Positions 22,204-29,039 of a stretch of 64,000 bases of DNA are shown one piece after another. Location of the stretch: positions 1 through 64,000 of the IMG/VR virus record IMGVR_UViG_3300048833_000111; one strand, given 5' to 3'. This stretch comes from a virus. Position 1 is the first letter of the stretch; the number at the start of each line of letters is the position of its first letter. A program made the position numbers and the translations under genes. The notes under the pieces are model-generated. The model had not been told where the DNA came from. It saw only the letters and a program-made list of their open reading frames with translations, and did no database searches.

Positions 22204-22276
22204 AAAGGAGAAATTGAGAAGAGTTTATTTTGTGCAAATTATATATTAGCGAAGTAACTCTTCTCTTACTACCTTT
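22204..22276 (-). repeat. CGAAGTAA hairpin element, copy 4 (no tRNA inside)
   Basis: Outer helix AAAGG (22204-22208)/CCTTT (22272-22276), 10-bp inner helix GAGAAGAGTT (22216-22225)/AACTCTTCTC (22256-22265), motif CGAAGTAA at 22250-22257. About 30 nt inside, no tRNA parts. Confidence 0.7.
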
Positions 22277-22358: not shown

Positions 22359-22362
22359 AATT

Positions 22363-22567
22363 AAAAGAGAGAATAAAATAATAAGGATATAGATGTTTTG
22401 ATTCCATATCTAGAAAGAATGTTCCTAAAATACCCTTTAGTATAGGTAGAATAAAGTTTCAATTAGTTTTTCCTTTATTCAACTGTTCTTACGTCATATT
22501 TAGTATGTTCAGGCATATGCCTGTAATATAAAAATTTACGAAGTAACTTATTACTAACTACTCTTTT
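22363..22567 (-). repeat. CGAAGTAA hairpin element, copy 5 (encloses about 160 nt of structured RNA)
   Basis: Outer helix AAAAGAG (22363-22369)/CTCTTTT (22561-22567), inner helix TAATAAG (22379-22385)/CTTATTA (22547-22553), motif CGAAGTAA at 22539-22546. The loop holds perfect hairpins (GAATAAAG/CTTTATTC, CAGGCATATGCCTG, TAGAT/ATCTA) but no tRNA T loop. Confidence 0.65.
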
Positions 22568-22569
22568 AG

Positions 22570-22779: not shown

Positions 22780-22781
22780 AT

Positions 22782-22910
22782 AAAAGAGGGAAATTTAACA
22801 AACTTGTGAGATTTCTCTCGGATGGATTTGAACCACCAACAGATTGTGTATGAAACAATTACTCTACCAATTGAGTTACGAAGTAAGTTTGCTATTACCA
22901 CCCTTATATT
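22782..22910 (-). repeat. CGAAGTAA hairpin element, copy 6 (encloses permuted tRNA-Met)
   Basis: Inner helix CAAACTT (22799-22805)/AAGTTTG (22885-22891), weaker outer helix using GGG/CCC, motif CGAAGTAA at 22879-22886. Confidence 0.7.
22808..22881 (-). tRNA. Circularly permuted tRNA-Met (CAT), break in the acceptor stem
   Basis: On the minus strand: TCG-TA, D arm ACTCAATTGGTAGAGT, anticodon arm ATTGT-TTCATAC-ACAAT, T arm GGTGGTTCAAATCCATC, acceptor CGAGAGA, then AA, then TCTC. The bases before TCG (ACTTAC) do not pair with CGAGAGA, but joining the trailing TCTC to TCG gives TCTCTCG, a perfect 7-bp acceptor. The mature length would be about 73 nt. The permuted reading is inferred by analogy with the Lys and Leu copies. 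Confidence 0.6.
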
Positions 22911-23525: not shown

Positions 23526-23543
23526 GAAATATTTTTGTGGAAG

Positions 23544-23907
23544 TGGAGATGTGCGGACTCGAACCGCAGTCTTTAATACTCCTATATATAATACTTTATA
23601 CAGCTTATTCTCCAACACTTATTTAAAGACTCTGTTGGGACAGTCTATGAAATCAAATCGCTAGTTAGCTTATGCAGCTATTGCAACCTGTCTTGTTCCC
23701 CAAGATAAATCTTGAGAAGGAGATACAGATTTTCTCTCTCCTTTGTGTACTACCATCATTGGAGTACTAAATGTGTAGTTTATATCAACTACTTCTTGTG
23801 CATCATTATCAATGTTTCCATTTATTCAATTCACCTTAGTTTTAACCAGTTATCTCTCTGGGCTGAATATTATATAAGTCTTACCAAATCAAATCCAGGT
23901 CATCCCC
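23544..23907 (-). ncRNA. ssrA: tmRNA with an unusually long tag reading frame
   Basis: The minus strand starts GGGGATGACCTGGATTTGAT, close to the bacterial tmRNA 5' end, and ends TGCGGTTCGAGTCCGCA-CATCTCC; acceptor GGGGATG/CATCTCC pairs in 7 positions. The segment before the T arm (TAAGCTGTATAAAG...AAAGACT) matches the tRNA-like domain, with helix AGTCTTTA/TAAAGACT. Total length 364 nt, like E. coli. A frame ending GCA ATA GCT GCA TAA (23670) gives a tag ending RQVAIAA. It is open back to at least GCA at 23799-23801, implying about 43 residues. Hairpins normally formed after the tag seem to be inside it. Confidence 0.85.
23670..23801 (-). CDS. Probable tmRNA tag-encoding segment (up to about 43 aa)
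   Basis: The only frame through this tmRNA that ends in a hydrophobic-Ala-Ala tail reads AQEVVDINY at its start and RQVAIAA-stop at its end. The other two frames stop at TAG or TGA within about 20 bases of the likely resume site and do not end in AA. The true resume codon cannot be fixed by eye; the frame is open from a TGA about 27 bases further upstream. Typical tags have 8-35 residues. Confidence 0.5.
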   Translation of the reverse strand, partial: AQEVVDINYTFSTPMMVVHKGERKSVSPSQDLSWGTRQVAIAA

Positions 23908-24850: not shown

Positions 24851-26566
24851 TTATATTACTACTCTTTTCACTTTTTCTAAGTGATGGGCAGCATTGAATT
24901 CAGATGTAGCAATATCATCAAACATTGCATATCCGTATCCATAGTAATATCTTACCTTATCTCCTGCAATACAGTTAGTACCATATCCAGCTAAGTCAAC
25001 TGAATATACATAAGGATTGCCTGATTTCTCAACATACCCCATATAGCTCTTATAGCTATTGCCAATATTACATTCATTATCAGATAAGATAAATACTCTA
25101 GTATATTTATTACCAGAAGCATTTGCAGTATTCCAAGCTGATGCTAAACTAGTTCCTCCCATATTTGCACTACTTAAGTTTTTAGCTAAAGTAAATACAT
25201 CAACATTGGGATTATACTGCACATATTTAGCAGAAGAACCAAATACAATTATATCTGCATTGGTAGCTATTGCTATTGTAGCTGCAACAAGTGCTGCTTT
25301 ATGTGCGCATAATACACCAATCTTACCATTAGGTAGTCTAATAGGAGTATGCATAGAACCAGATTGGTCCAAGAATATACAGTTATTTCCTGGTAGCATT
25401 TCTGCTAAATTAGGAATAGCTTCAATATATCCTTTAGCTAATGCCTGTGATATTTGTCTAGAGTAAGGAGTATTAAACTCAGAGAGCATAATATCATTTG
25501 CCAAATCTAGTTGATATGGCATTATTTTTCCTTCTCTAATCAATCTTGGATTGGAAACTAATTCACACACCTTACTGACAGTATCTGGGTCTGGGTTATT
25601 GATAAGAATGTTTCTTAAATTTCTCAAACAAGCCAGTATACCCAGTTTGTTTGTATCAAGAAGTTCTTTCCAATTATCAGATTTTGCCTGCTTTAAGACT
25701 TGCTCTGCTTCATCTTTATCCAACTTACCTTCCTTAACAGCTTTTGCTACAATTTGTCCTGCTTCTCCTTGGTTAACTTCCCAAGTATTTGCTGACACAT
25801 TGTAACCTCTCATTATTGCATCTAAAGTATAGACATCTTTATCCTCATATTTAACTATAGCACCTGATTTTTCTCCAGATGGGTGTGTTAAATTGATTAC
25901 ATCTATAAGTTTAGATTTGTATTTCAATAATGAATAAGTGTCGATAGATTCCAAAGCATCTTTGAAACCTTTCTTCATAGCATTTGTAAGCTTTGTACCA
26001 CTTACATTTACTTCACTACTTGTTTCTCCAGTCCTGTGATTTACCACAGTAGTAGTTTTATATTCCCCATTAAGGGCAACAAAACCTGCAATAATTTCAG
26101 ACATATCATCAGGTCTGAATATTACTCCACCTTTTTCTTTTTTCTTATCCCATAGACCATAAAATCTCTTTCCAAACTCTTGTCCTGAAAGATGTGGGGC
26201 AATAAATACAGATGCTGCGTGAGAGATAGTTCTCATACCTTCTCCTAAGCATCTAGAATAAACTATACATTGACAAGTTAAGTACAGATTTTCTGTAGCA
26301 CATTCCCTAATTAGACTTTCTAGTTCTACTAGTGTCTGTTTATCAGTTCTGTAATACTGGTTCTGTAATTTTAATGTGTTAAGCATAGTTAACAATTTCA
26401 ACCATTTATCTTGTGTATGGGCAGGTAATCCCTGTCTATTTACAGTATCTGGTTTTGGAATAGCTCTTGAGGCTACTAAGTTTTCTTTAGGTTTCTTCTG
26501 ACCTATAACTCCTGCTAATTTTGAGTTTGTTTTTGACATATTCAGTTCAATTTTATATGTTGACAA
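24851..26566 (-). CDS. Ro60/Rsr-like TROVE-domain RNA-binding protein
   Basis: The first 370 residues form the HEAT-like TROVE ring (DKWLKLLTMLNTLKLQNQYY, then RTDKQ; CIVYSRCLGEGMRTISHAAS, FRPDDMSEIIAGFVAL). The C-terminal third is a vWA domain with an intact MIDAS DxSxS: FLDQSGSM (D400, S402, S404), then GGTSLASAW and LSDNE. This is the architecture of Ro60, which binds misfolded RNAs and Y RNAs. At 571 aa it is the full usual length. Bacterial homologues act with tRNA-like YrlA RNAs and nucleases. It is flanked by hairpins and lies next to the MoxR/vWA genes and the tRNA/tmRNA array, suggesting RNA quality control or handling of the structured RNAs here. Confidence 0.9.
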   Translation of the reverse strand: MSTYKIELNMSKTNSKLAGVIGQKKPKENLVASRAIPKPDTVNRQGLPAHTQDKWLKLLTMLNTLKLQNQYYRTDKQTLVELESLIRECATENLYLTCQCIVYSRCLGEGMRTISHAASVFIAPHLSGQEFGKRFYGLWDKKKEKGGVIFRPDDMSEIIAGFVALNGEYKTTTVVNHRTGETSSEVNVSGTKLTNAMKKGFKDALESIDTYSLLKYKSKLIDVINLTHPSGEKSGAIVKYEDKDVYTLDAIMRGYNVSANTWEVNQGEAGQIVAKAVKEGKLDKDEAEQVLKQAKSDNWKELLDTNKLGILACLRNLRNILINNPDPDTVSKVCELVSNPRLIREGKIMPYQLDLANDIMLSEFNTPYSRQISQALAKGYIEAIPNLAEMLPGNNCIFLDQSGSMHTPIRLPNGKIGVLCAHKAALVAATIAIATNADIIVFGSSAKYVQYNPNVDVFTLAKNLSSANMGGTSLASAWNTANASGNKYTRVFILSDNECNIGNSYKSYMGYVEKSGNPYVYSVDLAGYGTNCIAGDKVRYYYGYGYAMFDDIATSEFNAAHHLEKVKRVVI

Positions 26567-27887: not shown

Positions 27888-29039
27888 TTAATAATATAAA
27901 TCTCTATCACTTGCAGCTACTAGAGGTCTATCACCTTTTTGCATCCTAGCTAAAGCCTTTGCAACTTGTTCGTCTCTAGATATCTGTTGTGGATTCCTAT
28001 ACTCAACTTGTGGTTCATTAGAAAAATTAATATTGTTATTAACCTTTCTAAATATATTAGACCTATCCTCTGTAGATAAATCCTGACATACCATATTAAG
28101 AATTCTTTTGCTGGTATAACCAGCATTGATTAAAATAGATATATCTTCTACATTTCTGGTAGATAGATAATTACCTATTTCTTCAAAAGCATCTCTCATA
28201 GCTTCAACCCAAGGATAATAGTTACCCATAAGTTGTTTCTCCAATTGAATATGATATCCAATATGGTGTCTACAAAATCTAAATCTATCCATTAAAGCCA
28301 TATCTTGGAAATCCCTACCTGAATAATCAGTAGAGCCTTTCCCCCAAGTATTTCCACACATAACTAAATAAAAATCCTTGTGCTTTTTAGCTGTTGGATT
28401 ATCATCTCTATGTGGAATAGATATAAAGTTAGAATTATCTGCAATACCATTAAAGAATAGTGCCATATCTCCTGACATAGCATCATATTCATCTACTAAG
28501 AATAGACCACCATTTTCATATGCATTCAAGAAAGAAGTCTGTAAGTATACCTCAGATTTAGGTTGTTTATAACCTAATAAATCATGTACACTAGAGTCTC
28601 TAGAACAAGAATATTTATAAAAAGGTATGTTCATTCTTTTAGCTATTTCAGCTACCATATAAGTTTTACCAGTTCCTGCTGGTCCAACTAACATAGTTTT
28701 CTTTTGTATTACAAGGGATTTTACAACATCTTCCATTTTAGGATGGTCCATATGTTGTATTTCAATTTCAGAGGTATTGGGGAGAACTATTGTAGTTCTA
28801 CCTTTTACTATCTCTTCCATTATTTTATCCCGCATATTTCTTGCAGCATATTTTGCTGCATCTTTATGCTCTTTCAATATATTTTGAAGCTCTAGTCTCC
28901 ATTCATCTGAAGATTTAGATACATCAACATCAAAAGCAAGAATACTATCTTTCAATTTATCTTGAAAGATAGTATCTATTTCCTTTGCCAATCTATCTAA
29001 ATCAAATTCAGGTACTGCCTGTGATTTGATTTCATCCAT
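27888..29039 (-). CDS. MoxR/CbbQ-type AAA+ ATPase
   Basis: Walker A MLVGPAGTGKTYMVAEIA (about residues 115-132), then FYKYSCSRDSSVHDLLGYK, Walker B GLFLVDEYDAMSGDM, sensor 1 FYLVMCGNTWGKGS and an arginine finger region MALMDRFRFCRHH. This is the MoxR class of AAA+ remodelling ATPases. The N-terminal 100 residues are helical and may recognise the partner. It starts the module that continues with the vWA-like, acidic and Ro60 genes. Role inferred: ATP-driven remodelling of a protein or RNP complex. Confidence 0.85.
   Translation of the reverse strand: MDEIKSQAVPEFDLDRLAKEIDTIFQDKLKDSILAFDVDVSKSSDEWRLELQNILKEHKDAAKYAARNMRDKIMEEIVKGRTTIVLPNTSEIEIQHMDHPKMEDVVKSLVIQKKTMLVGPAGTGKTYMVAEIAKRMNIPFYKYSCSRDSSVHDLLGYKQPKSEVYLQTSFLNAYENGGLFLVDEYDAMSGDMALFFNGIADNSNFISIPHRDDNPTAKKHKDFYLVMCGNTWGKGSTDYSGRDFQDMALMDRFRFCRHHIGYHIQLEKQLMGNYYPWVEAMRDAFEEIGNYLSTRNVEDISILINAGYTSKRILNMVCQDLSTEDRSNIFRKVNNNINFSNEPQVEYRNPQQISRDEQVAKALARMQKGDRPLVAASDRDLYY

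What the first reader, a model, noticed from the sequence alone, without database searches (positions are those of the whole stretch)
22363..22567. Element copy enclosing about 160 nt of non-tRNA structured RNA
The same flanks enclose perfect hairpins (GAATAAAG/CTTTATTC, CAGGCATATGCCTG) but no tRNA. If the element circularises its loop, this would produce a stable circular small RNA, possibly a Y-RNA-like ligand for the Ro60 protein encoded nearby.
Basis: inference. Interest (0 to 1): 0.75.

Follow-up and report, generated by a model that had tools for sequence, protein, structure and literature searches.

The report
Phage Y RNA with unusual head
This stretch most likely encodes a small non-coding RNA of the "Y RNA" kind, a partner of the phage's own Ro60 ring protein; many large phages carry several such RNAs, most of which display a rearranged tRNA on a shared stem, while this copy displays a different structured domain of unknown target.

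Summary
The RNA runs on the minus strand (22568-22362). A two-part stem with conserved internal loops (P1, UAGUUA, P2, UUACUUCG / P2', UUUAUUCU, P1') encloses 153 nt with no tRNA and no Rfam match that folds far better than shuffles (z -3.9). It fills the gap between tRNA-Arg and tRNA-Asn to within 0-3 nt.

The stem is a family. At least 100 copies occur in large phages, with covarying helices. About three quarters of copies with 60-135-nt inserts carry a tRNA cloverleaf circularly permuted relative to the stem; others carry short loops; a few, like this one, carry long non-tRNA domains.

I first read this as a circularising intron. The evidence turned me to a Y RNA: the stem lies beside and on the same strand as Ro60 genes (80 of 81 copies; 38/62 Ro60 loci against no independent copy in about 90 control loci), stands upstream of Ro60/TROVE genes in Rhizobium, crAss-like and gut phages, and matches Rfam YrlA (E 7e-6 to 1e-3, below Rfam's cut-off) where the insert is tRNA-like.

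Ro60 binding and this copy's target are untested.

The parts
22561..22568 (-). P1 5' strand (UAAAAGAG), outer helix of the Y-type stem; starts right after tRNA-Arg
   Evidence: pairs with 22362-22369
22555..22560 (-). conserved loop strand UAGUUA (family consensus UAGUAA)
   Evidence: U 100%, A/G 90/10, G 100%, U/C 75/25, A 84%, A 100% in 100 copies
22547..22554 (-). P2 5' strand (GUAAUAAG)
   Evidence: pairs with 22378-22385; P2 varies with kept pairing across copies
22539..22546 (-). conserved core UUACUUCG, junction between stem and displayed domain; aligns with the YrlA strand AUGCUU
22386..22538 (-). 153-nt displayed (effector) domain, multi-hairpin, not tRNA
22511..22524 (-). hairpin CAGGC-AUAU-GCCUG in the displayed domain
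22450..22480 (-). hairpin GAAUAAAG...CUUUAUUC in the displayed domain
22378..22385 (-). P2' strand (CUUAUUAU)
22370..22377 (-). conserved loop strand UUUAUUCU (family AAYUUUCU)
   Evidence: last base covaries with base 2 of the 5' loop strand
22362..22369 (-). P1' strand (CUCUUUUA), ends 3 nt before tRNA-Asn
24851..26566 (-). Ro60-family protein (TROVE + vWA), 571 aa, about 2.3 kb upstream in the same transcription direction
   Evidence: (phrog_850 E 9e-27)
18437..18521 (-). sister copy, 27-nt insert, between tRNA-Glu and tRNA-Ala
20487..20631 (-). sister copy displaying a permuted tRNA-Lys(UUU)-like domain; YrlA match 20520-20585, E 9e-4
21287..21432 (-). sister copy displaying a permuted tRNA-Leu(UAA)-like domain, by hand reading
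   Evidence: not found by the strict descriptor: P2 has an internal loop
21441..21567 (-). tRNA-like RNA (GGGGAAG...CUUCCCC) with the stem in place of a D-arm
22204..22276 (-). sister copy, 24-nt insert
22781..22908 (-). sister copy displaying a tRNA-Met(CAU)-like domain split in the acceptor stem

Best explanation
The stretch encodes a phage Y-type RNA. Its 5' and 3' ends form a stem with two conserved internal loops. By analogy with bacterial Y RNAs this stem is the Ro60-binding part, and Ro60 is encoded 2.3 kb away on the same strand. The enclosed 153 nt are the displayed domain. In sister copies that domain is a tRNA mimic cut open at various points; here it is a multi-hairpin domain of unknown partner. 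The RNA lies flush between two tRNAs, so RNase Z and RNase P cuts would release it as a linear RNA of about 207 nt. Shown by computation: the stem, its covariation, the insert fold, the flush tRNA boundaries, the association with Ro60 genes and the YrlA likeness of sister copies. Inferred: transcription, release, Ro60 binding, and the role (tethering something to Ro60 or gating its ring, as described for Deinococcus Y RNA).
For: Stem: P1 and P2 canonical in 90-100% of 100 copies at most positions with 3-5 pair types, though copies were picked by pairing. Independently, base 2 of loop strand 1 and the last base of loop strand 2 covary A-U 90, G-C 9, G-U 1 (Fisher 5e-12). Ro60 link: phrog_850 in 13 of 20 contigs found by DNA pattern alone against 1 of 20 controls, and that one also holds a likely copy. 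Starting from Ro60, 38 of 62 loci hold a strict copy within 5 kb, 80 of 81 copies on the Ro60 strand and 40 within 1 kb; controls 1/91 (a re-fetched true copy) and 0 shuffled. Named phages: copies directly upstream of TROVE/Ro60 in Rhizobium RHph_TM39, csAssE-Sib, cr111_1 and LR745206. Rfam YrlA matches at E 4e-5 to 1e-3 in IMG/VR copies and the window Lys copy, 5e-4 in csAssE-Sib, 7e-6 and 1.6e-5 in the Rhizobium phage. FpV4, the closest named relative by capsid protein, lacks both Ro60 and the element. Orthologues of this copy in L003 and L004 keep stem and core and sit 3-6 nt from the flanking tRNAs.
Against: All YrlA matches are below Rfam's cut-off (69 bits), and tandem tRNAs alone can give weak YrlA matches (up to 29 bits). 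This copy has no tRNA-like domain and no YrlA match itself. 7 of 20 pattern-found contigs lack Ro60 and 24 of 62 Ro60 loci lack a strict copy; many are fragments. The control loci seldom carry tRNA arrays. Two Vibrio Ro60 phages show no copy by this descriptor. No binding or expression data.
Confidence: 0.8

Rival explanations
1. The stem is a small intron-like splicing element in permuted order that cuts out and circularises what it encloses; this copy makes a circular RNA of about 155 nt.
For: Joining the insert ends gives a tRNA cloverleaf in 47 of 61 inserts of 60-135 nt, against 0/244 shuffled and 4/244 random segments. L226 1493 is a perfect tRNA-Asn after removal of a 63-nt hairpin.
Against: The inferred junction slides over 9 nt on one side and 13 on the other relative to the core, unlike a fixed cleavage site. 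One group has acceptor stems closed by a tetraloop and could not make ordinary tRNA. The GGGGAAG group would be left without a D-arm. No RtcB in 13 phages; an RNA_ligase domain in only some. It does not explain the Ro60 link or the YrlA match.
Confidence: 0.08
2. The stem is a tRNA-array spacer or processing signal (or a small mobile hairpin), with no partner protein, and the insert is filler.
For: Copies often fill tRNA spacers exactly: 22/77 flush on both sides against 95/1219 at random. Inserts vary in length and sequence.
Against: Ro60 association and same-strand bias; copies next to Ro60 in LR745206 where ARAGORN finds no tRNA in 41 kb; tRNA arrays of phi4:1 and phi17:2 and the whole FpV4 genome have none; the insert here folds better than all shuffles.
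Confidence: 0.1
3. A sub-case of the best explanation: the insert is a degenerate former tRNA domain on a still intact stem, so this copy is a decaying Y RNA.
For: Insert sequence is not conserved between the three orthologues, while the stem is.
Against: The domain is long and structured here (z -3.9) and in L004 (z -2.7), and is kept at 153-169 nt in all three phages.
Confidence: 0.2

Closest known systems
YrlA, bacterial Y RNA-like (Rfam RF02553)
   Same: Terminal stem with a U/C-rich 5' loop strand and AAAAC-type 3' loop strand; tRNA-like domain permuted relative to the stem in sister copies; located next to Ro60/Rsr genes.
   Different: Scores below Rfam's cut-off; extra outer helix with the UAGUAA/UUUUCU loop; many copies per genome inside tRNA arrays; complete tRNA with anticodon arm displayed in sister copies; no tRNA-like domain in this copy.
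Y RNA of Deinococcus radiodurans, tethering Rsr to PNPase (described in PMC7790460)
   Same: Y RNA working with a Ro60 orthologue, with a part that tethers a second protein.
   Different: Phage-borne; partner of the displayed domain unknown; no direct sequence comparison made here.
Circularly permuted tRNA genes of algae and archaea
   Same: Order of tRNA halves reversed in sister copies.
   Different: No bulge-helix-bulge motif or splicing endonuclease shown; the reversed order follows from grafting the stem onto a tRNA mimic.

Membership tests
bacterial/phage Y RNA | encoded near a Ro60 (TROVE) gene | tested here: met
   window: same strand, 2.3 kb from Ro60; family: 38/62 Ro60 loci, 80/81 on the same strand
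bacterial/phage Y RNA | long stem formed by the RNA's own 5' and 3' ends with a conserved internal loop | tested here: met
bacterial/phage Y RNA | binds Ro60 | not testable with these tools
   no binding data
YrlA (RF02553) | passes the Rfam gathering score | tested here: not met
   best 39 bits in sister copies against a cut-off of 69; no YrlA match for this copy
YrlA (RF02553) | tRNA-like displayed domain | tested here: not met
   this copy has none; sister copies do
permuted intron / circularising element | fixed splice or cleavage sites relative to a catalytic core | tested here: not met
   inferred junction offsets vary from -5 to +4 and 0 to 13 nt
permuted intron / circularising element | circular product | not testable with these tools
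   no RNA data

The most novel reading that the evidence does not exclude
These phages carry a set of Y RNAs that use one Ro60-binding stem as a display platform: permuted tRNA mimics with fast-changing anticodons, closed acceptor stems and, in this copy, a non-tRNA domain, held on Ro60 as decoys or bait for host enzymes that attack or bind tRNA and other RNAs.
Probability: 0.25. Interest if true: 0.85.

Novelty: new variant of a known kind. Interest (0 to 1): 0.62.

Why it matters
Bacterial Y RNAs are poorly understood, and only few examples have been studied. A phage family with several copies per genome, one conserved stem and interchangeable displayed domains gives many natural variants for testing what Ro60-Y RNA particles do, and whether phages use them against tRNA-cutting defence. 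It also means that a number of annotated phage "tRNAs" (for example tRNA-Lys in csAssE-Sib and tRNA-Gln in cr111_1, beside Ro60) are probably Y RNA domains.

Tried and rejected
A self-splicing or circularising intron was my working model. It was dropped when junction positions slid, a closed-acceptor group appeared, D-armless members appeared, no RtcB was found, and the Ro60/YrlA evidence came in. A strict search for the ordinary intron order gave 0 hits. RNA_ligase PF09414 is present in only part of the phages (7/13 and 8/20), so it is no universal partner. Genome-contig hits were at about chance level except a few MAG contigs. Literature searches for phage permuted or circular tRNAs found nothing relevant; the main paper on bacterial Y RNAs (Chen et al. 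2014) is not held. A Vibrio phage Ro60 region gave no copy with this descriptor.

Full report
OBSERVATION. The stretch lies in a tRNA array of a 96,217-base phage contig, read on the minus strand. The closest named relative by major capsid protein is Flavobacterium phage FpV4, 59% identical. There is no tRNA and no Rfam match. Whole-RNA fold z = -3.9, 0 of 200 shuffles as stable. The RNA starts immediately after tRNA-Arg and ends 3 nt before tRNA-Asn (on L159, an identical copy of this stretch).

FAMILY. TTACTTCG occurs seven times in the window, all on the tRNA strand in the array (0.17 expected). Ro60-bearing relatives and pattern scans of IMG/VR gave 100-108 distinct copies with both helices. 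Controls: sites with the same 5' motif but shuffled downstream sequence reach score 14.5 in 0/789 cases against 41/263; relaxing the core to two mismatches adds one hit against 73 exact and 19 one-mismatch hits. Geometry is fixed: 14-15 nt from P1 to core; U, A/G, G, U/C, A, A on the 5' strand; AAYUUUCU on the 3' strand; core UACUUC nearly invariant. Base 2 of the 5' loop strand and the last base of the 3' loop strand covary (A-U 90, G-C 9, G-U 1; Fisher 5e-12); this pair was not required by the search, although U-ending loops got a small bonus in the score.

INSERTS. Of 61 inserts of 60-135 nt, 47 form a full tRNA cloverleaf when their ends are brought together, against 0/244 shuffled inserts and 4/244 random segments of the same loci. 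The stem is grafted at the anticodon stem, acceptor stem, variable loop or D-arm. One group of eight has conserved D- and T-arms and an acceptor stem closed by a tetraloop (mostly GAAA), but a changing anticodon loop. In L226 a tRNA-Asn carries the stem as an extra arm in its anticodon stem, and the GGGGAAG...CUUCCCC RNAs, one of them in the window, carry it in place of a D-arm. Other inserts are 15-40-nt loops. A few are long and not tRNA: this copy, its orthologues L003 13796 and L004 13666 between the same tRNAs, and L007 12080, L163 7729, L229 6926. The three orthologues share stem and core, not insert sequence.

WHAT IT IS. I first favoured a circularising intron. Four results turned me. 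First, the implied junctions slide, and several groups could not yield tRNA. Second, Ro60 (phrog_850) is in 13/20 contigs found by DNA pattern alone against 1/20 controls, and the one control with Ro60 also holds a likely copy. Third, starting from Ro60 in IMG/VR, 38/62 loci hold a strict copy within 5 kb, 80/81 copies lie on the Ro60 strand and 40 within 1 kb; among 91 control loci the only hit was a re-fetched true copy, and shuffled loci gave none. Fourth, named phages with Ro60 have copies directly upstream of the gene: csAssE-Sib, cr111_1 and LR745206, and a run of about seven in Rhizobium phage RHph_TM39, three by the strict descriptor and the rest by reading. Rfam's YrlA model, a bacterial Y RNA with a tRNA-like domain, matches copies at E = 7e-6 and 1.6e-5, 5e-4, 4e-5 to 3e-4 and, for the window Lys copy, 9e-4. 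All are below Rfam's curated score, and neighbouring tRNAs alone can mimic the model weakly (up to 29 bits). In csAssE-Sib the alignment places the YrlA loop strands AUGCUU and AAAACUUG on the phage strands UACUUC and AAAC.

MECHANISM. Shown by computation: stem, conservation, Ro60 association, flush tRNA borders. Inferred: tRNA processing enzymes release a linear RNA of about 207 nt; Ro60 holds it by the stem; the 153-nt domain faces outward and binds, tethers or competes with something. In Deinococcus, Rsr is tethered by Y RNA to PNPase, and the tRNA-like domain of Salmonella YrlA has been proposed as a competitive inhibitor of an anticodon nuclease (PMC7790460). No RtcB ligase was found in 13 phages, so nothing points to circularisation.

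NOVELTY. Y RNAs near Ro60 in bacteria and phages, with tRNA-like domains, are a known kind: Chen et al. 2014, cited in PMC7790460; that the paper includes phages is from my memory, as it is not held. The many copies in tRNA arrays, the free choice of graft point on complete tRNA mimics, the changing anticodons and the non-tRNA displayed domain of this copy appear to be new variants. I found no paper describing them in the held library.

Noticed in passing
L142 3721, L171 5511, L152 10909, L155 (3088 -), L228 (8352 -), L236 (312 -), L008 11949, L010 14076: A Y-RNA group with conserved D- and T-arms and a closed acceptor stem but changing anticodon loop, including anticodons that would read stop codons (UUA, UCA).
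   Followed up: partly
L226 1405-1600: tRNA-Asn(GUU) interrupted in its anticodon stem by a 63-nt hairpin of the same stem type; perfect cloverleaf once the hairpin is left out.
   Followed up: partly
window 21441-21567; L010 14961, L012 3826, L059 (5013 -), L165 847, L184 (4577 -, 2777 -), L210 3353: tRNA-like RNAs with GGGGA.../...UCCCC ends, the stem where a D-arm should be, and different anticodon loops.
   Followed up: partly
L184 3190-3605: GOLLD RNA (RF02032, 288 bits) on the same contig as the stem copies and Ro60.
   Followed up: no
window 23541-23907: A tmRNA gene in the phage tRNA array.
   Followed up: no
window 20034-20468: HNH endonuclease gene inside the tRNA array.
   Followed up: no
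window 27888-29039: MoxR-like AAA ATPase gene near Ro60; Vibrio phage phiKT1024 also has a MoxR-like gene about 6 kb from its TROVE gene.
   Followed up: no
L291 19778-19851; L290 18884-18959: Features annotated as tRNA-Lys (csAssE-Sib) and tRNA-Gln (cr111_1) are the displayed domains of stem copies just upstream of Ro60, so probably Y RNA parts.
   Followed up: partly
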